This document shows, piece after piece, positions 20,373 to 57,882 of a stretch of DNA of 64,000 nt. Within the stretch, counting starts at the first letter, position 1. Every line of letters starts with the position of its first letter. The stretch is from Salinarchaeum sp. IM2453 (lineage in GTDB: Archaea; Halobacteriota; Halobacteria; Halobacteriales; Salinarchaeaceae). The translations under genes were made by a program, and so were the position numbers. The stretch covers positions 1,677,226 through 1,741,225 of the forward strand of contig NZ_CP081183.1 of NCBI RefSeq assembly GCF_019693215.1. The letters run 5' to 3'. The notes under the pieces were generated by a model, which ran no database searches, had not been told where the DNA came from, and saw only the letters and a list, made by a program, of their open reading frames with translations.

Positions 20373-20595
20373 ATACGAAACACTGTCTAGACAAGGTTAA
20401 ATAGGTATAGGTGTTCGGTTGCTCTACTAATTCAGTCACGTGCAAGATATGCGCCCTATATCCAGCCCGTCTCCAAGAATATATCACTAACTGAGGATTT
20501 CAGCAGAGCCGATTATTTATAACCGACTTTTTCTCTCGTTACATCATATTATCCTAATCCACGCTGTATAAATGCCCAAGTCACGATGTATCGGT

Positions 20596-21207
20596 ATGGA
20601 GTCCGACGAGGTCCGACAACACTGGGCTACCCGTGAGGGAAAGTATTCCCCGGAATATTACGCTGATATTGGCCCGAATGAGGTGAGCCGGACACTCGCA
20701 GATATTTTGGACCACTATGTCGACCAGAATGCGGCGATCCTCGAGATCGGCTGTGGATCAGGTCGCCACCTCGAACACCTTCGCCGACAAGGGTTTCGTA
20801 ACCTTGCTGGAATCGATATCAACGAGGAGGCCTTTGACGTTATGGCCCAGTACTATCCAAACCTCTTTGATTCAGGAGAGTTTGAGTCCGGAGCTGTCGA
20901 GCAATTGTTGCCAACGATTGAAGACGATGCGTTTGATGTGGTCTATTCTGTTGAAACGCTTCAGCATATCCCACCAGAAGAAACTGACTGCTTTGAAGAA
21001 CTCCCCCGGATTACCCGTGATTTGCTGATTACAGCAGAGAACGAAGGCAATGGTCCCAACCGTGGTCGGACTGACTACACCTTTGTCCAAGATGAGTTCC
21101 CGCTGTTTTACCGCGACTGGAAAGGTATTTTTAGCGACCTTGGAATGGCACAACTGCTTCGTGAGCCGACAAACCGAGATACCATCCGTGTTTTCCGGAC
21201 CCTGTAG
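20596..21207 (+). CDS. Class I SAM-dependent methyltransferase
   Basis: A 203-residue methyltransferase. The SAM-binding motif I is ILEIGCGSGRHLEHL near residue 50, followed by the acidic post-I loop (GIDINEEAF) and motif IV-like DDAFDVVYSVETLQHIP. The last third would form the cap over the substrate. The substrate is unknown. The ATG at 20596 starts MESDEVRQHW, the family-like N-terminus; an ATG at 20572 adds eight residues. It is monocistronic with a promoter-like TATTTATAACC near 20513. Confidence 0.82.
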   Translation: MESDEVRQHWATREGKYSPEYYADIGPNEVSRTLADILDHYVDQNAAILEIGCGSGRHLEHLRRQGFRNLAGIDINEEAFDVMAQYYPNLFDSGEFESGAVEQLLPTIEDDAFDVVYSVETLQHIPPEETDCFEELPRITRDLLITAENEGNGPNRGRTDYTFVQDEFPLFYRDWKGIFSDLGMAQLLREPTNRDTIRVFRTL

Positions 21208-21871: not shown

Positions 21872-22477
21872 CTCATTTGAAGAGCAGCCCGACCGACCGA
21901 ATTGCTACAGGTTATCTAAATATTATAGCTACTGGCCCTCGGATTGATTACACCTTTGACCAAGAGGTTTCAATTCCTTCTCGGATTTTCTACCTACTGT
22001 AACAACCTGTACGTCATCCAGGACATCTAATCGGGGTGTGTTTCAATTCCTTCTCGGATTTTCTACCTACTGTAACACCCTTTCGCTCAGAGCTGTCAAC
22101 AGAATCCGTTTTGTTTCAATTCCTTCTCGGATTTTCTACCTACTGTAACCCTAAGCGAACTCGAACCCGGCACCGAACTCGAACTGTTTCAATTCCTTCT
22201 CGGATTTTCTACCTACTGTAACCGCCGCCCTGCTCTATCAGGTCGAGCGTGTCGAGAAGTTTCAATTCCTTCTCGGATTTTCTACCTACTGTAACCGCAT
22301 GAACGGCGGAATTTTGTTTCCGATTCCTGATAGTTTCAATTCCTTCTCGGATTTTCTACCTACTGTAACAGTTGTGTTGCCGTCGTCGACCTCAGTCCAA
22401 TAAACGTTTCAATTCCTTCTCGGATTTTCTACCTACTGTAACTTCAGATTCAATCGGGGCAATATTCGAGATGTAGA

Positions 22478-22699
22478 GTTTCAATTCCTTCTCGGATTTT
22501 CTACCTACTGTAACCTTGTGATACGGCTTTCGCAGTCGTAATCGGTGCGCCGTTTCAATTCCTTCTCGGATTTTCTACCTACTGTAACCTTGTGATACGG
22601 CTTTCGCAGTCGTAATCGGTGCGCCGTTTCAATTCCTTCTCGGATTTTCTACCTACTGTAACCTTGTGATACGGCTTTCGCAGTCGTAATCGGTGCGCC
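22478..22699. repeat. Three tandem copies of a 74-bp CRISPR repeat-spacer unit
   Basis: The same 37-bp spacer (beginning CTTGTGATACGGCTTTCGCA) occurs at 22515-22551, 22589-22625 and 22663-22699, each with its repeat. This is best explained by slippage or unequal recombination inside array 1 rather than three independent acquisitions. Confidence 0.95.
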
Positions 22700-24753
22700 G
22701 TTTCAATTCCTTCTCGGATTTTCTACCTACTGTAACCCGACTCCGTTTCTGGTATGCTCGCATGGGTCAGAGAGTTTCAATTCCTTCTCGGATTTTCTAC
22801 CTACTGTAACCTGACAGTTCGACGCTGCCAGCATATCCTATTTCAGCAGTTTCAATTCCTTCTCGGATTTTCTACCTACTGTAACGGCCGCAGACCTGAC
22901 AACCACGGTCTTCTCCGCTCAAGTTTCAATTCCTTCTCGGATTTTCTACCTACTGTAACCCCTCCGTCGCGACAATGACGGCGACGATCCATGCCGGGTT
23001 TCAATTCCTTCTCGGATTTTCTACCTACTGTAACCATTACCCGAACCTCACAGTTCCCACAGCTCCGGCAAGTTTCAATTCCTTCTCGGATTTTCTACCT
23101 ACTGTAACGACCTGACAACCACGGCTTTCGCCGTTCATCGCCCGGTTTCAATTCCTTCTCGGATTTTCTACCTACTGTAACCCGCCGTCGGGATTTTGCT
23201 CAGTACCGTTCATCGATTAACGTTTCAATTCCTTCTCGGATTTTCTACCTACTGTAACATTGTCCGTTTGGTCTGTTCTATCAGTCATTATTATGTTTCA
23301 ATTCCTTCTCGGATTTTCTACCTACTGTAACTGCCGGTTGTGCCGACTTACTGATCTCGATGTGTTTCAATTCCTTCTCGGATTTTCTACCTACTGTAAC
23401 GTCTTTATCGTGATTGTCTTGTCGGTCGTTCTTGCGGTTTCAATTCCTTCTCGGATTTTCTACCTACTGTAACGTCAATGGTTGTTTCGTCGCTATCGTC
23501 TTTTGAATAGTTTCAATTCCTTCTCGGATTTTCTACCTACTGTAACTTGTTGATACATCTCGTTGTTTAGGTAGTCCAAATCGTTTCAATTCCTTCTCGG
23601 ATTTTCTACCTACTGTAACAACAGTGACGTGAAGAGATATGGTGTGAGATCGTGGAGTTTCAATTCCTTCTCGGATTTTCTACCTACTGTAACCGGTCGG
23701 TGATGGATCATGCCACGTTCAATTGACTGTTTCAATTCCTTCTCGGATTTTCTACCTACTGTAACGCCAGCTCGTCGGCCCCGAGGAGTGGAGCATTCGA
23801 GTTTCAATTCCTTCTCGGATTTTCTACCTACTGTAACATCGGTAGGTCTGCTTCCGACAATTTATCCAGAATAAGTTTCAATTCCTTCTCGGATTTTCTA
23901 CCTACTGTAACGTTTAGATCAAAATCAACAGGCGACCACAGAGACAGTGTTTCAATTCCTTCTCGGATTTTCTACCTACTGTAACAGCCGTTCGTGGCCT
24001 CAACAGCTCCGATGGTATCGTTTCAATTCCTTCTCGGATTTTCTACCTACTGTAACCTTGTAAGACAAGTTCCAGAATGGCAAACAACTGTTAACGTTTC
24101 AATTCCTTCTCGGATTTTCTACCTACTGTAACACCATGCGAGGAAACGGCCGCTGACCTACGTCGGCCGTTTCAATTCCTTCTCGGATTTTCTACCTACT
24201 GTAACGATCGCTCTTGAGGATGCCAACGAAGATAGACATCCTCGTTTCAATTCCTTCTCGGATTTTCTACCTACTGTAACCGTGTGTCTCGATAGTATCC
24301 TGGTCGATCTCAATGAGTTTCAATTCCTTCTCGGATTTTCTACCTACTGTAACGTATTCTCCAGCCTCATCAACTGAAAATGTTATCTGTTTCAATTCCT
24401 TCTCGGATTTTCTACCTACTGTAACCCGGCCGGTTTTTGCCGCGTATGCAGCATCTTGCTTGTTTCAATTCCTTCTCGGATTTTCTACCTACTGTAACTT
24501 GTCGTCGGGCGGTCTGGTGAATCTATTGTTAACTGTTTCAATTCCTTCTCGGATTTTCTACCTACTGTAACATGTATCAAGCCGCAGAAGGCGCTGACGA
24601 GCGGCTCAGTTTCAATTCCTTCTCGGATTTTCTACCTACTGTAACACCATGCAACACGAAGGAAATCACAAACGGCGTGAAGTTTCAATTCCTTCTCGGA
24701 TTTTCTACCTACTGTAACGAGGAACTATGACATATGCATATAAACCGGACGGA

Positions 24754-24893
24754 GTTTCAATTCCTTCTCGGATTTTCTACCTACTGTAACTTCAACATGA
24801 CAAGTTTCTACCAGAAACAGGGAGTTTCAATTCCTTCTCGGATTTTCTACCTACTGTAACTTCAACATGACAAGTTTCTACCAGAAACAGGGA
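24754..24893. repeat. Two tandem copies of a 70-bp CRISPR unit
   Basis: Spacer 24791-24823 (beginning TTCAACATGACAAGTTTCTA, 33 bp) is repeated exactly at 24861-24893. A second internal duplication in array 1. Confidence 0.95.
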
Positions 24894-24968
24894 GTTTCAA
24901 TTCCTTCTCGGATTTTCTACCTACTGTAACGTCAACCCCACCAGTAGCATGGCACAAACCGCAATCCC

Positions 24969-25266
24969 GTTTCAATTCCTTCTCGGATTTTCTACCTACT
25001 GTAACCCCATATCTTCGCGGTCCCCGACGGGTTTCACGGTGTGTTTCAATTCCTTCTCGGATTTTCTACCTACTGTAACGTCATACACGCTGATCCCGGC
25101 AACGCTCCCCTCCTCGAGTTTCAATTCCTTCTCGGATTTTCTACCTACTGTAACCCCATATCTTCGCGGTCCCCGACGGGTTTCACGGTGTGTTTCAATT
25201 CCTTCTCGGATTTTCTACCTACTGTAACGTCATACACGCTGATCCCGGCAACGCTCCCCTCCTCGA
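24969..25266. repeat. Tandem duplication of a 149-bp two-spacer CRISPR block
   Basis: Two consecutive spacers (25006-25042, beginning CCCATATCTTCGCGGTCCCC, and 25080-25117, beginning GTCATACACGCTGATCCCGG) are repeated in the same order at 25155-25191 and 25229-25266. Duplication of a two-unit block shows homologous recombination between repeats. Confidence 0.95.
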
Positions 25267-25818
25267 GTTTCAATTCCTTCTCGGATTTTCTACCTACTGT
25301 AACATCTGCTATCTGTGCGGTCGTGTCCTTCATACAAGATGTTTCAATTCCTTCTCGGATTTTCTACCTACTGTAACGTGTAGTGTCCGTCTATTGCAAC
25401 CGGACTGAACAATCGTTTCAATTCCTTCTCGGATTTTCTACCTACTGTAACAGTGCCAATGTGGGGGTTCTGGTGGTTTTTCTAATTGTTTCAATTCCTT
25501 CTCGGATTTTCTACCTACTGTAACGGGCTCACGCCTAACGGGTTCTGGTGGCTCACGTTGTTTCAATTCCTTCTCGGATTTTCTACCTACTGTAACAATA
25601 ATCAACGCGACGATGACAATCCCGGCAACAGGTTTCAATTCCTTCTCGGATTTTCTACCTACTGTAACCGTCTTGATATTTGGGGGGTACTTTCAGACTC
25701 ATGCTTTGTTTCAATTCCTTCTCGGATTTTCTACCTACTGTAACATTCGACGAGTGTCTGGAGTTCCTCAACACTCAGCCAGTTTCAATTCCTTCTCGGA
25801 TTTTCTACCTACTGTAAC

Positions 25819-25842
25819 AGTGGACTTGGGACGATGATAACG
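25819..25842. other. 24-bp junction between two oppositely oriented CRISPR arrays
   Basis: AGTGGACTTGGGACGATGATAACG, given here only as its ends AGTGGACTTG and GATGATAACG, lies between the last array 1 repeat and the first array 2 repeat. It is shorter than any spacer in either array and far too short for a CRISPR leader or promoter. Both flanking repeats look intact. Confidence 0.9.
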
Positions 25843-28800
25843 GTTGCAACAAGTAGAAAATCCAGTAAGGAATTGAAACTCTCAGTCGGGGACCTGTCGC
25901 CAGTGAATGCGCGCTGTTGCAACAAGTAGAAAATCCAGTAAGGAATTGAAACTGGTCGGGGTGTTCGTCGGCGAAGTCCTCCAGCCCCAGTTGCAACAAG
26001 TAGAAAATCCAGTAAGGAATTGAAACCTGGCTGTTCTCGACGAGGGTTTCCATCTGCTGGATGGTTGCAACAAGTAGAAAATCCAGTAAGGAATTGAAAC
26101 CGCACTGAAGGCGTGTATCTCTGTTGGGACCATTTTGTTGCAACAAGTAGAAAATCCAGTAAGGAATTGAAACTCTGATGAGATCGAGTTCGTCGGCAAA
26201 AAGACACTCCGTTGCAACAAGTAGAAAATCCAGTAAGGAATTGAAACATCCACAAGATGGGCTGTCAGTTGCAAGTAGCCCGAGAGTTGCAACAAGTAGA
26301 AAATCCAGTAAGGAATTGAAACGTGGAGGACGCGGCCTCATTGAGCTCGCCATGGACATGTTGCAACAAGTAGAAAATCCAGTAAGGAATTGAAACGTGG
26401 CTGATAAAGTTATACACGCCAGCCAGCGCAATCGTTGCAACAAGTAGAAAATCCAGTAAGGAATTGAAACCTGTTGAGTTCAACGCGACATCAAACACGA
26501 TGTGGTTGCAACAAGTAGAAAATCCAGTAAGGAATTGAAACAAAATTGAGTTACGAGATACACTGGCGTCAGACCCGTTGCAACAAGTAGAAAATCCAGT
26601 AAGGAATTGAAACTGGTCTGTTAGTTCACATGTTTTTGCTACAACTTTCGTTGCAACAAGTAGAAAATCCAGTAAGGAATTGAAACATATTGACCGACTT
26701 CCCAATACTTCCCGGACACTCAGTTGCAACAAGTAGAAAATCCAGTAAGGAATTGAAACGGATGACGACACGGAGGACCCAACAACGATCCCGACTGTTG
26801 CAACAAGTAGAAAATCCAGTAAGGAATTGAAACGGGGTATGCCCCCGAACAATCCCGCGCTGACGTTGAGAGTTGCAACAAGTAGAAAATCCAGTAAGGA
26901 ATTGAAACGGTCCCGCCCTTCGCCGCCACCTCCATACCGAAGTGTTGCAACAAGTAGAAAATCCAGTAAGGAATTGAAACCGGTTTGACGTGCGGGAATA
27001 CGACTCAGATGGAAATGTTGCAACAAGTAGAAAATCCAGTAAGGAATTGAAACAAATTCGGTCGTTGAGGAGAAGGACCCCGAGAAAGAGTTGCAACAAG
27101 TAGAAAATCCAGTAAGGAATTGAAACATGACCGTGAGTAAAGTATCGCTGGGCCTCTGGTTTTGTTGCAACAAGTAGAAAATCCAGTAAGGAATTGAAAC
27201 AACCCCCGTAGGACGGTCCGACGCAAGCCATATCTCGTTGCAACAAGTAGAAAATCCAGTAAGGAATTGAAACTATCGGCCGTGTAGCCGTGTATGCATG
27301 GTACGAGACCGTTGCAACAAGTAGAAAATCCAGTAAGGAATTGAAACAACGTTGTCGACTCGGACGAAACCCGGTCGTCTGTGATGTTGCAACAAGTAGA
27401 AAATCCAGTAAGGAATTGAAACGTGGCTCGATAACACTATCTGGAAGTGGTGGACCGTTGCAACAAGTAGAAAATCCAGTAAGGAATTGAAACACGATAC
27501 AGTAAACGCGGAACGGAAGTTTGACGATCCGTTGCAACAAGTAGAAAATCCAGTAAGGAATTGAAACGCTCACGTTCACCCGCGCCGGGCGCGACGGCGT
27601 GAAGTTGCAACAAGTAGAAAATCCAGTAAGGAATTGAAACGACTTCGCGTATCACGCGGGCGTCACGCCCGATGTCGTTGCAACAAGTAGAAAATCCAGT
27701 AAGGAATTGAAACGCGAGCATGTGGATTCGGATGTGACCGTGACCGAGTGGGTTGCAACAAGTAGAAAATCCAGTAAGGAATTGAAACACATCGAATGAC
27801 CAAATCAGACGTAGGGACAATGGTGGTTGCAACAAGTAGAAAATCCAGTAAGGAATTGAAACTATTGACAGAGAAAGAAGCAGAGCGATTGATTAACTGT
27901 TGCAACAAGTAGAAAATCCAGTAAGGAATTGAAACTGGGGTAATTCACTTCATCAGCCCGGAGGCCACACCTTGTTGCAACAAGTAGAAAATCCAGTAAG
28001 GAATTGAAACAACTGGTAAAGTCAAGCGGGAAGGTAACACCAATATTTGAGTTGCAACAAGTAGAAAATCCAGTAAGGAATTGAAACACAAAGGCCCATA
28101 CTTCACCGCCACGCTATCAGACGGTTGCAACAAGTAGAAAATCCAGTAAGGAATTGAAACGATGACGGACTAACGCCTGAATCAGAACAGCAACAACGTT
28201 GCAACAAGTAGAAAATCCAGTAAGGAATTGAAACGATTGTTGGTGGGGATTTGATAGCGATTCAGGAGTGGAGTTGCAACAAGTAGAAAATCCAGTAAGG
28301 AATTGAAACTATGCCGCGATTGTTGGTTGGAGCGGGTTTGTGTACTTGTTGCAACAAGTAGAAAATCCAGTAAGGAATTGAAACATGATTAATTATGCTT
28401 GGATTATGGGATGCATTCAGGTTGCAACAAGTAGAAAATCCAGTAAGGAATTGAAACCAGTGGACTACGCCGACTCCGTTTCTGGCATGCTGTTGCAACA
28501 AGTAGAAAATCCAGTAAGGAATTGAAACCGGTCGACACGGAAGAGGTTGAGCTGGACGCTGGTGAGTTGCAACAAGTAGAAAATCCAGTAAGGAATTGAA
28601 ACCCCCTCCCTTTCTTACCGCTTATCTGACAGAAACTGTTGCAACAAGTAGAAAATCCAGTAAGGAATTGAAACAATCCTATGGCAGTTGCTGAGGCAAT
28701 GCGAACAGAAGAGTTGCAACAAGTAGAAAATCCAGTAAGGAATTGAAACTTGTCGGTTTCCCCGGAATGGAAGCCCATTGGGGGTAGTTGCAACAAGTAG

Positions 28801-30511
28801 AAAATCCAGTAAGGAATTGAAACCGATTTTCGCAAACAAATGATCCATGATAAGCGAACGGTTGCAACAAGTAGAAAATCCAGTAAGGAATTGAAACAAG
28901 GAACACAATACATCCTGAGGGTAGAGTTACTCAAGTTGCAACAAGTAGAAAATCCAGTAAGGAATTGAAACCCCCTTTCTTTCTCCCCGCTTATCTGGCA
29001 GAAACTGTTGCAACAAGTAGAAAATCCAGTAAGGAATTGAAACATTGACTTCTATGCAGGGGAGAGGGAAGGTGTTGATGGGTTGCAACAAGTAGAAAAT
29101 CCAGTAAGGAATTGAAACATTAACAAATTTCAATAAACCTACCTGAAAAAGTGTGGTTGCAACAAGTAGAAAATCCAGTAAGGAATTGAAACTTTTTCAT
29201 CATGGCGATGCGCGACTAACCAACTAATGTTGCAACAAGTAGAAAATCCAGTAAGGAATTGAAACTTCAGCGATTGTCGTCCGACCTTTGAGCTGTTCAC
29301 AAGTTGCAACAAGTAGAAAATCCAGTAAGGAATTGAAACTGAAAGTCGGCATATGCACATTGTCACAAAACAGTTGCAACAAGTAGAAAATCCAGTAAGG
29401 AATTGAAACATTTCATCCTCGTTATCTTCACCCTCAACGTACACAGTTGCAACAAGTAGAAAATCCAGTAAGGAATTGAAACTGGACGACGTTAATGACT
29501 ACATCGTCGGAGAGTACCGTTGCAACAAGTAGAAAATCCAGTAAGGAATTGAAACCCGGGGCATCGAGAGACAATCACGCTGGCGTTCTGTCGTTGCAAC
29601 AAGTAGAAAATCCAGTAAGGAATTGAAACAAACAACGACGATCGGGCTTGATATCCCTGCCGTGTTGCAACAAGTAGAAAATCCAGTAAGGAATTGAAAC
29701 TTATGCTGGCGCACGCCAAGCCGAGGAAGATGATGCGTTGCAACAAGTAGAAAATCCAGTAAGGAATTGAAACAGCAGTGATCGCAATCACGTAATCGTT
29801 TGGCGGTCCGTTGCAACAAGTAGAAAATCCAGTAAGGAATTGAAACCGTGTCACTCCACCACTTTGGCGGTTGTCCGACGAGGTTGCAACAAGTAGAAAA
29901 TCCAGTAAGGAATTGAAACTGATCCGGCACAAACTGCACTTCGAGTTTCGGATGTGAGTTGCAACAAGTAGAAAATCCAGTAAGGAATTGAAACTGGCTG
30001 TCCGCAATGACATATCGCATTCCGCGAGGATGTTGCAACAAGTAGAAAATCCAGTAAGGAATTGAAACGGCCACCAGAGTCTTTTCTGAGGCTCACAGAC
30101 GACCGTTGCAACAAGTAGAAAATCCAGTAAGGAATTGAAACAGACTGTCGAAACCCCTCGCTCCTGTCGGCGTTGGTTATGTTGCAACAAGTAGAAAATC
30201 CAGTAAGGAATTGAAACGAACGGAGTCGAGATTCTTGAACCAGATGATCCGCAGTTGCAACAAGTAGAAAATCCAGTAAGGAATTGAAACAACGCAGATC
30301 TGTTTGACTTTGTTGACTCGTGGCTACTGTTGCAACAAGTAGAAAATCCAGTAAGGAATTGAAACTCCATAGCCGTTATCGTGAGGTTCCCATATCCGTA
30401 GTTGCAACAAGTAGAAAATCCAGTAAGGAATTGAAACTGACCGTTTCCGACACAGTGAAGCGCCAGATTAGAAAGTTGCAACAAGTAGAAAATCCAGTAA
30501 GGAATTGAAAC
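25843..30511 (+). CRISPR. CRISPR array 2: 64 repeats of 37 bp, 63 spacers
   Basis: The plus strand shows 64 identical repeats beginning GTTGCAACAAGTAGAAAATC and ending GTAAGGAATTGAAAC, with spacers mostly 33-39 bp. First repeat 25843-25879, last 30475-30511. The repeat is the reverse-complement relative of the array 1 repeat, differing at 7 of 37 positions. With the ATTGAAAC handle at the 3' end, transcription to the right is expected. There is no leader-like sequence on the left because array 1 starts there; the right flank (30512 onward) is ordinary DNA. No exact duplicate spacers were seen, but one related spacer pair is present. No cas genes lie nearby. Confidence 0.97.
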
Positions 30512-32277: not shown

Positions 32278-32577
32278 GTTTCAGATGGACCCTTGTGGGG
32301 TTGAAGTCTGTCTGTGTGGCTCCGAGAATAAACACTCCTCCAGCGTGTTTCAGATGGACCCTTGTGGGGTTGAAGTGAGAAAACACCAGATGCCTTCGGA
32401 GATCGATGCGAGTTTCAGATGGACCCTTGTGGGGTTGAAGTGCAACGAGACCGATCTCATTGATAGACATATCATAGTTTCAGAAGGACCCTTGTGGGGT
32501 TGAAGTCGGCTTCGTAGCGTATTCATCTCTCGGGGTGTGTTGTTCTTGTTTCAGACGAATCCTTGTGGGGTTGAGGT
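32278..32577 (+). CRISPR. CRISPR array 3: five 30-bp repeats of the haloarchaeal type I-B kind
   Basis: Repeats start at 32278, 32347, 32412, 32477 and 32548. The first three read GTTTCAGATGGACCC then TTGTGGGGTTGAAGT. The fourth has one change (CAGAAGG) and the fifth is clearly degenerate (CAGACGAATCC, then TTGAGGT). Spacers are 39, 35, 35 and 41 bp. The repeat matches the 30-bp family used by haloarchaeal type I-B systems. Decay at the right end marks the trailer, so the leader is on the left and transcription goes right. No cas genes are visible; effector proteins would have to act from elsewhere in the genome, or the array is a relic. Confidence 0.93.
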
Positions 32578-55701: not shown

Positions 55702-57882
55702 GTGGCTGATATCGACGACTTTACCCGGTTTTTTCCATATGAAGACCCCTTCGAGAATCAAGCAGAGGCGATGGACCGGATTTACAATGCACTGGTCCGG
55801 GGCCAAGATGTGTTATTTGAAGGCGCATGTGGAACTGGAAAGACGTTGGCTTCACTTGCTCCATCACTTAGCTTTGCACGCGAGAATGACAAAACAGTAA
55901 TCATTACTACAAACGTCAACCAGCAAGCACGGCAGTTCCGAAGAGAGGCAGCGGCTATCTCGCAGCAGGAACCAATACAGGCTGTTGTGTTCCGAGGTAA
56001 AGGATCGATGTGTCATATCGATGTTGATTACGAAGAGTGCCAGGTTCTTCGGGATAATACATACGAGCTCGTTGATGCTGAACAGTCTAAACATGAGTTA
56101 CAGCAGCAACATGAACATCTACAGTCTCAGACGCAACAGACCAATAGTCAGGCAGACAAAGCACAGTCTGCTGTTCTTGAAGAGCTAAACGAACTTAACG
56201 AGCAAATTGAGGAACTCGAAAACAGAGCGACATGTGACTACTACTATCAGAATCTCCGAGAGCATAATGATGAATTTTACCAGTGGCTATTCGATGGCGT
56301 TCGCTCCCCAGAAGAAATCTATCAATACGCCGAAGAGGCTGATATCTGTGGCTATGAACTGCTTAAAGACGGGCTTGAGAATGTTGATCTAGTTGTCTGT
56401 AATTATCATCATCTGCTTGACTCCACAATTCGAGAGCAGTTTTTCCGCTGGCTTGATGTCGATCCGAATGATGTCATTGTAATTTTTGATGAGGCACACA
56501 ACATTGCTGACACTGCTCGTGATCACGCCCGGGTCACACTCTCAGAACGCACTCTTGAACGTGCAATTGATGAACTCGATACTGTTGATGACTCGCGGGT
56601 GGAGTCAGCAAGAAATATCTTCTCAGCTTTTCTTGAGGCTCTTCGATCCACGTATGATCAGCGTCTTGGATTTGGCGAGCGGGGAACAATTGGAGACGCA
56701 TGGAAGGATATCACGATTACCAACGAAGACAAACGTGATGACTTGACCCTTGCATTCTTTAACGAGTACACTGGCTCTGGTATTCAATCCGATCTCAGTG
56801 AGGCTTTAGAACTCGGAGAACAGTTAGACCAGACATATGAAACCGCTTACCGAGAAGGTGATGCAAACACTCGACAGGAGTGTCCAACGTTAAACGGCGC
56901 ACAATTTGTCCAGCAATGGATGAACACGACAACGGATACTGGGAAATATCCAGTGTTATCACTTCGTCGAGATGCAGGGAGTGAAGAAATTTATGGTCGC
57001 GCTGAGATCTATACGTGCATCCCAAGTGATGTTACTGGGGATCTCTTCTCCGAAACGTATTCAACGGTGCTTATGAGTGCAACACTCCAGCCGTTTGATG
57101 TCACGGAAGATGTTCTGGGGCTTGATTCTCCAGTTGCGATGGTATATGAGCTACCGTTTCCAAGAGATAATCGTGAAACCTTTGCCGTCAGTACTCCGCC
57201 GTTGTTTTCGAACCAACGCGACGATGACTCTGTTCAAAATGCAATTTACAGTGCGCTTTCAGATGCAATAACATTCATTCCTGGGAATATCTTGGTCTTT
57301 TTCCCTAACTATACCGAGGCTAATCGATACTATGAGATGCTATCTGGGGACACAGATGCATCGCTGTATCTTGATGAACCCGGAATGAATGCAACGACGA
57401 TTCGTGATGAGTTTACAGATGCCTCTAACGGTGTGCTGTTCACATCCTTGTGGGGTACACTAACAGAAGGCGTTAGCTTTGATGGTGACGACGCTGTTGC
57501 TGTCATCGTTGTTGGTGTTCCATATCCTCACCTCGATGACCGGGCACAGGCAGTACAGGATGCGTATGATAGCACATTTGCTGACCGGGCTGTAGATAAC
57601 CCCGGATGGCGATATGCTGTTGAGATTCCAACAATTCGAAAAACACGACAGGCACTTGGTCGCGTTATTCGCTCACCATCTGATATTGGAACACGCATTC
57701 TCTTAGATAATCGCTATACATCAGACGGTGTGTACGAACTCGGAGATTACAGCGTCCATGAGACGCTGCCGAAACACCTCTGTGACGAACTGATCGATGT
57801 TGATCCTGACAAACTCAGATACGCCTTGCTGAACTTCTATCAGGGACACAACGCCTACGATGGGAATCCACCTCGCCCATAG
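55702..57882 (+). CDS. XPD/Rad3-type DNA helicase
   Basis: A 726-residue superfamily 2 iron-sulfur helicase related to XPD (nucleotide excision repair) and DinG. Walker A is FEGACGTGKTLASLAPSL near residue 42; the DEAH box is VIVIFDEAHNIADTARDHAR near residue 255. Between them, Cys in SMCHIDVDYEECQVL, RATCDYYYQ and ADICGYELL form the four-Cys cluster site. A Gln-rich coiled insert (LQQQHEHLQSQTQQTNSQAD) lies inside the FeS domain. Motif VI is KTRQALGRVIRSPSDIGTRI. The start is a GTG at 55702 because the conserved DFTRFFPYEDPFENQAEAMD begins there. It follows idsA by 40 bp. Confidence 0.94.
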   Translation: MADIDDFTRFFPYEDPFENQAEAMDRIYNALVRGQDVLFEGACGTGKTLASLAPSLSFARENDKTVIITTNVNQQARQFRREAAAISQQEPIQAVVFRGKGSMCHIDVDYEECQVLRDNTYELVDAEQSKHELQQQHEHLQSQTQQTNSQADKAQSAVLEELNELNEQIEELENRATCDYYYQNLREHNDEFYQWLFDGVRSPEEIYQYAEEADICGYELLKDGLENVDLVVCNYHHLLDSTIREQFFRWLDVDPNDVIVIFDEAHNIADTARDHARVTLSERTLERAIDELDTVDDSRVESARNIFSAFLEALRSTYDQRLGFGERGTIGDAWKDITITNEDKRDDLTLAFFNEYTGSGIQSDLSEALELGEQLDQTYETAYREGDANTRQECPTLNGAQFVQQWMNTTTDTGKYPVLSLRRDAGSEEIYGRAEIYTCIPSDVTGDLFSETYSTVLMSATLQPFDVTEDVLGLDSPVAMVYELPFPRDNRETFAVSTPPLFSNQRDDDSVQNAIYSALSDAITFIPGNILVFFPNYTEANRYYEMLSGDTDASLYLDEPGMNATTIRDEFTDASNGVLFTSLWGTLTEGVSFDGDDAVAVIVVGVPYPHLDDRAQAVQDAYDSTFADRAVDNPGWRYAVEIPTIRKTRQALGRVIRSPSDIGTRILLDNRYTSDGVYELGDYSVHETLPKHLCDELIDVDPDKLRYALLNFYQGHNAYDGNPPRP

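What the first reader, a model, noticed from the sequence alone, without database searches (positions are those of the whole stretch)
22737..28491. A spacer in array 1 and one in array 2 match the same target
Spacer 22737-22773 begins CCGACTCCGTTTCTGG and spacer 28458-28491 contains the same stretch; over 22 bases they agree except for one T/C difference. Both are on the plus strand although the arrays are oppositely oriented, so relative to their repeats they were taken in opposite orientation and offset. This points to independent acquisitions from the same or a related virus by both arrays, targeting opposite strands.
Basis: seen in the sequence. Interest (0 to 1): 0.7.

Follow-up and report, generated by a model that had tools for sequence, protein, structure and literature searches.

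The report
Two CRISPR memories of one invader
Two long CRISPR arrays that sit head to head in this salt-loving archaeon each hold a fragment of what looks like the same foreign gene, taken from opposite strands; such repeat captures are ordinary, but the arrays look like the surviving arms of a CRISPR locus that has lost its leaders and cas genes.

Summary
Spacers 22737-22773 and 28458-28491 share 21 of 22 bases, far above shuffled spacers, and lie in opposite orientation relative to their repeats. Their guide RNAs would target one site from opposite strands, overlapping by PAM-distal ends. No protospacer was found in phage, plasmid, IMG/VR or genome collections or in the host chromosome, so "virus" remains inference. 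The pair is not special: among 177 distinct spacers from seven arrays of this genome I found six overlapping pairs, three of them between these arrays and type I-B arrays. That fits one shared, limited pool of invaders (roughly 50-280 kb of target sequence). The more unusual fact is structural. Both repeats are type I-D-like and their leader ends should face each other, yet only 24 bp separates the arrays, with no leader and no cas gene. A relative (G024) has the expected intact layout: two divergent arrays with related but different repeats flanking leader, cas6-cas10d-...-cas1-cas2, leader. The window's arrays look like the arms of such a locus after loss of its centre, or after an assembly error; I cannot separate these. 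Interest is low to moderate for the pair, somewhat higher for the locus.

The parts
21967..25818 (-). Array 1: 53 identical 37-nt repeats, 52 spacers (47 distinct); in the inferred transcription sense (repeat ending ATTGAAAC) it reads on the minus strand, leader end at 25818
   Evidence: orientation from I-D arrays of the own genome and of G024
22737..22773 (-). Spacer A1_11, first member of the pair
25819..25842 (.). 24-bp junction between the leader ends of the two arrays; no leader, no cas gene
25843..30511 (+). Array 2: 64 identical 37-nt repeats, 63 spacers; inferred transcription on the plus strand, leader end at 25843
   Evidence: orientation as for array 1
28458..28491 (+). Spacer A2_36, second member of the pair
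22886..22922 (-). Spacer A1_13, overlaps A1_16 (23109-23144), 25 of 30 bases
23109..23144 (-). Spacer A1_16, overlaps A1_13
23332..23363 (-). Spacer A1_19, overlaps type I-B spacer B2_12 elsewhere in the genome, 26 of 31 bases, same strand
26834..26871 (+). Spacer A2_14, overlaps type I-B spacer B2_01, 17 of 17 bases, opposite strands
27274..27310 (+). Spacer A2_20, probably overlaps type I-B spacer B1_20, 23 of 30 bases, opposite strands
28603..28637 (+). Spacer A2_38, same site as A2_43, 30 of 35 bases, same ends
28972..29006 (+). Spacer A2_43, same site as A2_38

Best explanation
The two spacers are separate captures, one by each array, of overlapping pieces of one probably protein-coding site in the same or closely related mobile elements (probably viruses). 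Their crRNAs would pair with opposite strands, with overlapping PAM-distal ends and PAMs on the outside. They belong to a shared, limited pool of targets that the type I-B arrays of this cell also sampled. The arrays are the two divergent arms of a former type I-D locus: the leaders and cas operon between them are gone (24 bp remain), so neither array should gain spacers now, and use of their spacers would depend on stray transcription and on the intact I-D system 0.6 Mb away. Shown: the match, the opposite orientation, the other pairs, the absence of leader and cas genes in this assembly, and the intact layout in a relative. Inferred: viral source, time order, loss by deletion, inability to acquire, use in trans.
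For: 21 of 22 shared bases against shuffle maxima of 13-15. Opposite orientation follows from reverse-complementary repeats. Different ends and one substitution. Five further overlapping pairs, three with I-B arrays; the split over array combinations fits one pool. Own-chromosome origin not seen at up to 3 mismatches. I-D repeats ending ATTGAAAC have the leader 5' in the own I-D locus and in both G024 arrays. G024: two divergent arrays with repeats matching at 30 of 37, flanking 9.7 kb of leaders and I-D cas genes; arrays 1 and 2 also match each other at 30 of 37.
Against: No protospacer found for any spacer. Outer ends show no clear degenerate repeat, as a trailer end usually would. Only 1 of 3 recoverable 5' flanks fits GTN, and all four recoverable 3' flanks are YGY (read), which could mean a reversed orientation. 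G024's 123 distinct spacers show no overlap between its two arrays. The own I-D array shares no target with arrays 1 and 2.
Confidence: 0.7

Rival explanations
1. The 22-base match is coincidence or low-complexity similarity.
For: No target was found to anchor it.
Against: Score 19 against shuffle maxima of 13 (20 shuffles) and 15 (100 shuffles); not low-complexity; the single difference is synonymous in the best frame (read by eye).
Confidence: 0.03
2. The arrays are correctly read, but leaders and cas genes are missing only from the assembly, because two long arrays with near-complementary repeats were joined wrongly.
For: The relative has 9.7 kb between its two arrays, and 117 repeats in two inverted arrays are hard to assemble (inference).
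Against: Only indirect: the genome is a single 2.66-Mb contig, 98.55% complete. No reads were available.
Confidence: 0.2
3. The leaders lie at the outer ends (left of 21967 and right of 30511), the arrays converge, and they are still active.
For: No degenerate repeats at the outer ends; recoverable flanks at that side of the spacers are uniform (RCR in 4 of 4, read).
Against: All three I-D arrays with similar repeats that I read have the leader at the other end of the repeat. The two outer flanks share no sequence with each other or with known leaders, whereas the three I-B leaders of this genome are nearly identical.
Confidence: 0.15
4. One spacer arose from the other by recombination or copying between the arrays, not by a second capture.
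For: Array 1 does hold exact duplications.
Against: The shared part is internal at one end only, the ends differ by 12 and 15 bases, the orientation is opposite and a base differs; duplications in array 1 are exact whole units.
Confidence: 0.03

Closest known systems
Type I-D CRISPR-Cas locus with two divergent arrays (intact example here: G024, C1:2734255-2753191)
   Same: Two long divergent arrays, 37-nt repeats ending ATTGAAAC, related but different repeats (30 of 37 in both genomes)
   Different: In the window the leaders and the cas operon between the arrays are absent; 24 bp remain
Leaderless array F of Sulfolobus solfataricus (PMC4390879, passages)
   Different: Here two arrays face each other across a 24-bp junction, and inactivity is inferred, not observed
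Overlapping protospacers sampled from one element (PMC4390879, passages)
   Same: Several spacers cover overlapping sites of one element
   Different: Here the element is unknown, and the captures are spread over several arrays and two CRISPR subtypes
Genomes with multiple arrays and co-occurring CRISPR types (PMC12814883, passages)
   Same: Spacer repertoire distributed over several arrays and subtypes in one cell
   Different: That survey treats array statistics; I saw no such leaderless head-to-head pair in the passages read

Membership tests
Spacer pair from overlapping protospacers | Shared sequence above chance | tested here: met
   21 of 22 bases
Spacer pair from overlapping protospacers | Both spacers found in one target | tested here: inconclusive
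   No target found; metagenomes not scanned
Spacer pair from overlapping protospacers | PAM beside each protospacer | tested here: inconclusive
   Not recoverable for the pair; for other overlaps 1 of 3 flanks is GTN (read)
Type I-D CRISPR-Cas locus | cas10d, csc1, csc2, cas3 and adaptation genes beside the array | tested here: not met
   No I-D cas match of the eight L012 proteins in the window; the complete set is at L012, 0.6 Mb away
Type I-D CRISPR-Cas locus | Repeat like those of I-D arrays | tested here: met
   R2 matches the G024 I-D repeat at 29 of 37 and R1 at 27 of 37; that array lies beside I-D cas genes
Leaderless (orphan) CRISPR array | No leader next to the leader-end repeat | tested here: met
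   24-bp junction without leader similarity, given the inferred orientation and a correct assembly
Leaderless (orphan) CRISPR array | No new spacer uptake | not testable with these tools
   Needs strains or a time series

The most novel reading that the evidence does not exclude
The window holds a decapitated type I-D locus. A deletion removed both leaders and the cas operon and fused two large arrays (115 spacers) head to head. The memory persists with invariant repeats because it can still be transcribed from promoters outside or inside the arrays and loaded into a second, diverged I-D system in trans, while sharing its target pool with the cell's type I-B arrays.
Probability: 0.3. Interest if true: 0.55.

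Novelty: new member of a known kind. Interest (0 to 1): 0.33.

Why it matters
Overlapping captures spread over arrays of two subtypes allow a capture-recapture estimate of how much invader sequence a cell's memory really covers: here about 104 kb (95% range 48-283 kb), a few virus genomes rather than more than a hundred. The head-to-head leaderless arrays, if real, offer a natural test of whether stored spacers stay useful after their own leaders and cas genes are gone.

Tried and rejected
Target of the pair. Blastn of the merged 49-base site in 50,697 phage records gave two chance matches (E 0.3 and 3) and none in 72,556 plasmids. Three IMG/VR patterns in the best reading frame gave 0, 4 and 3 hits; the 7 hits do not continue the match (23-28 of 49 bases), and the other spacers gave only chance-level matches to them. 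A 19-base core ignoring frame gave 0. 392 genomes of the order, up to 3 mismatches, gave only the spacer itself. The species-genome scan with the degenerate core gave 36 hits, none with a haloarchaeal title; they were not examined further.

Other pairs. The core of A2_38/A2_43 gave 0 in IMG/VR. A degenerate core of A1_13/A1_16 gave 6 contigs with at best 24 of 37 bases, rejected. Single or merged spacers in phages gave chance matches or none. Merged A2_14/B2_01 in 117 genomes gave none.

All 115 spacers against 35 haloviral loci (558,857 bases): best E 0.002 (A1_14 on L096), against 0.016 for shuffled spacers, so slightly better than the control. The full-length identities of the five inspected were 25/38, 25/37, 25/37, 24/36 and 21/32; rejected as protospacers.

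Degenerate terminal repeats at the outer ends: not above shuffles. Remnant cas genes in the window: none. The I-D array's 11 spacers gave no pair above chance with arrays 1 and 2. Three further weak pairs of score 12 were laid out and rejected. In G024, 123 distinct spacers gave one similar pair, none between its two arrays, so cross-array pairs are not found in every such locus.

Full report
Observation. The window lies in a 2,656,678-bp single-contig genome (G000, 98.55% complete) and has 48% G+C. Array 1 has 53 identical repeats (21967-25818) and array 2 has 64 identical repeats (25843-30511). Score 19 compares with maxima of 13 in 20 shuffles and 15 in 100 mononucleotide shuffles of all 177 distinct spacers; triplet shuffles gave score 16 at a mean of 0.01 per shuffle and listed none higher. 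The arrays' repeats are reverse complements at 30 of 37 positions. Whichever end has the leader, the spacers therefore sit in opposite orientation relative to the repeats. In the inferred I-D sense the crRNAs overlap by their 3' ends, and the PAMs would lie outside the merged 49-base site.

Is it more than this pair? I compared spacers across all arrays of the genome that I found: arrays 1 and 2 (47 and 63 distinct), the I-D array (11) and four I-B arrays (25, 21, 6 and 4), 177 in all. Five exact duplicates in array 1 were dropped before counting. Six pairs score above 13: A2_38/A2_43 (30 of 35), A1_19/B2_12 (26 of 31), A1_11/A2_36 (21 of 22), A2_14/B2_01 (17 of 17), A1_13/A1_16 (25 of 30) and A2_20/B1_20 (23 of 30). 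The last has score 14; shuffles give 0.06 to 0.12 pairs of 14 or more on average, so it is probable rather than certain. Three of the six have opposite crRNA orientation and three the same (read), so opposite strands are not a special feature. If all spacers come from one uniform pool, six pairs imply about 104 kb of distinct target sequence (48-283 kb). The expected split over array combinations then fits what is seen: 1.14 expected and 1 observed between arrays 1 and 2; 2.35 expected and 3 observed between these and the I-B arrays. This assumes equal sampling and counts homologous sites in diverged elements as one. As controls, spacers of another genus showed no real match to these (best score 13 for 42 spacers; 14 for 123).

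Independent capture. Different ends, opposite orientation and one substitution speak against a simple copy between arrays. For A2_38/A2_43 the ends coincide, but five substitutions in 35 bases beside 64 invariant repeats argue for recapture at one site from diverged elements rather than decay.

Target not found. No protospacer was found for the pair in phage records, plasmids, IMG/VR patterns, 392 genomes of the order, the species-genome collection or the own chromosome. All 115 spacers against 35 haloviral loci gave nothing convincing. The source is therefore called viral by inference only.

The arrays themselves. The own genome has an intact I-D locus (Cas6, Cas10d, Cas7d, Cas5d, Cas3d, Cas4 and Cas1 by profile; Cas2 read from the sequence), followed by a leader and 12 repeats ending ATTGAAAC, the last one degenerate. 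It also has I-B cas genes (Cas3b, Cas1b). A relative, G024, has a 37-nt repeat 29 of 37 identical to the array 2 repeat beside I-D cas genes. Its layout is: array X of 43 repeats on the minus strand, leader, cas6-cas10d-cas7d-cas5d-cas3-cas4-cas1-cas2, leader, array Y of 84 repeats on the plus strand. The first repeats are 9.7 kb apart, the far ends are degenerate, and the two repeats match each other at 30 of 37. Both G024 leaders end in nearly the same motif. By this orientation the leader ends of arrays 1 and 2 face each other across 24 bp. That stretch has no similarity to the leaders tested and matches no spacer. No I-D cas gene remains in the window. The simplest reading is that the window holds the two arms of such a locus after its centre was lost. 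An assembly drop-out cannot be excluded.

Against this reading. The outer ends show no clear degenerate repeat. Only 1 of 3 recoverable 5' flanks fits GTN (GTC for A2_20; GGA for A1_19 and GCG for A1_13), the I-D PAM given in PMC10212523 (passages). The four recoverable 3' flanks are all YGY (CGT for A1_11, CGC for A2_36, TGC for A1_16, TGT for A2_14; read). With so few cases and diverged elements this may be chance, but it would also fit a reversed orientation or a second, 3' motif.

Known context. Leaderless long arrays (S. solfataricus locus F, inactive in acquisition) and overlapping protospacers are described in PMC4390879 (passages). Multiple arrays per genome, distributed spacer repertoires and orphan arrays are treated in PMC12814883 (passages). 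I-D leaders carry the promoter and are important for uptake (PMC10212523, passages). PMC10883916, seen only in the search listing, says that arrays are prone to harbour cryptic promoters, a possible route to expression without a leader.

Verdict. The pair is ordinary for a CRISPR-rich archaeon. The unusual part is the array architecture.

Noticed in passing
window 32278-32577: A third, small type I-B array (5 repeats, 4 spacers, last repeat degenerate) with a leader end nearly identical to those of the two larger I-B arrays elsewhere in the genome.
   Followed up: yes
window 21939-21965 and 21066-21092: The sequence just outside the distal end of array 1 matches 24 of 27 bases inside the ORF 20572-21207 (methyltransferase-like, by eye), 0.9 kb away; it could be a last spacer taken from a viral homologue, or a gene fragment.
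   Followed up: partly
window 22515-22699, 24791-24893, 25006-25266: Exact unit duplications in array 1: one spacer three times, one twice, and a two-spacer block twice.
   Followed up: no
overlapping spacers of arrays 1 and 2 (22737-22773, 28458-28491, 23109-23144, 26834-26871): In all four cases where an overlapping spacer reveals the 3' flank (inferred crRNA sense), the flank is YGY; n is 4, may be chance or a second capture motif (read).
   Followed up: no
window 55702-57882: ORF of 726 aa matches PADLOC typeIV_DinG profiles (E 4.8e-121), but no type IV cas genes turned up among the ten ORFs scanned; probably an ordinary DinG/XPD-like helicase.
   Followed up: no
L023 and L121 (G024 C1:2734255-2753191): Intact I-D locus flanked by two divergent arrays (43 and 84 repeats) whose repeats differ at 7 of 37 positions.
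   Followed up: yes
L012 13744-14170: A short I-B-type array (7 repeats with up to 5 mismatches) lies about 2.6 kb beyond the I-D array and lacks the leader end shared by the other I-B arrays.
   Followed up: no
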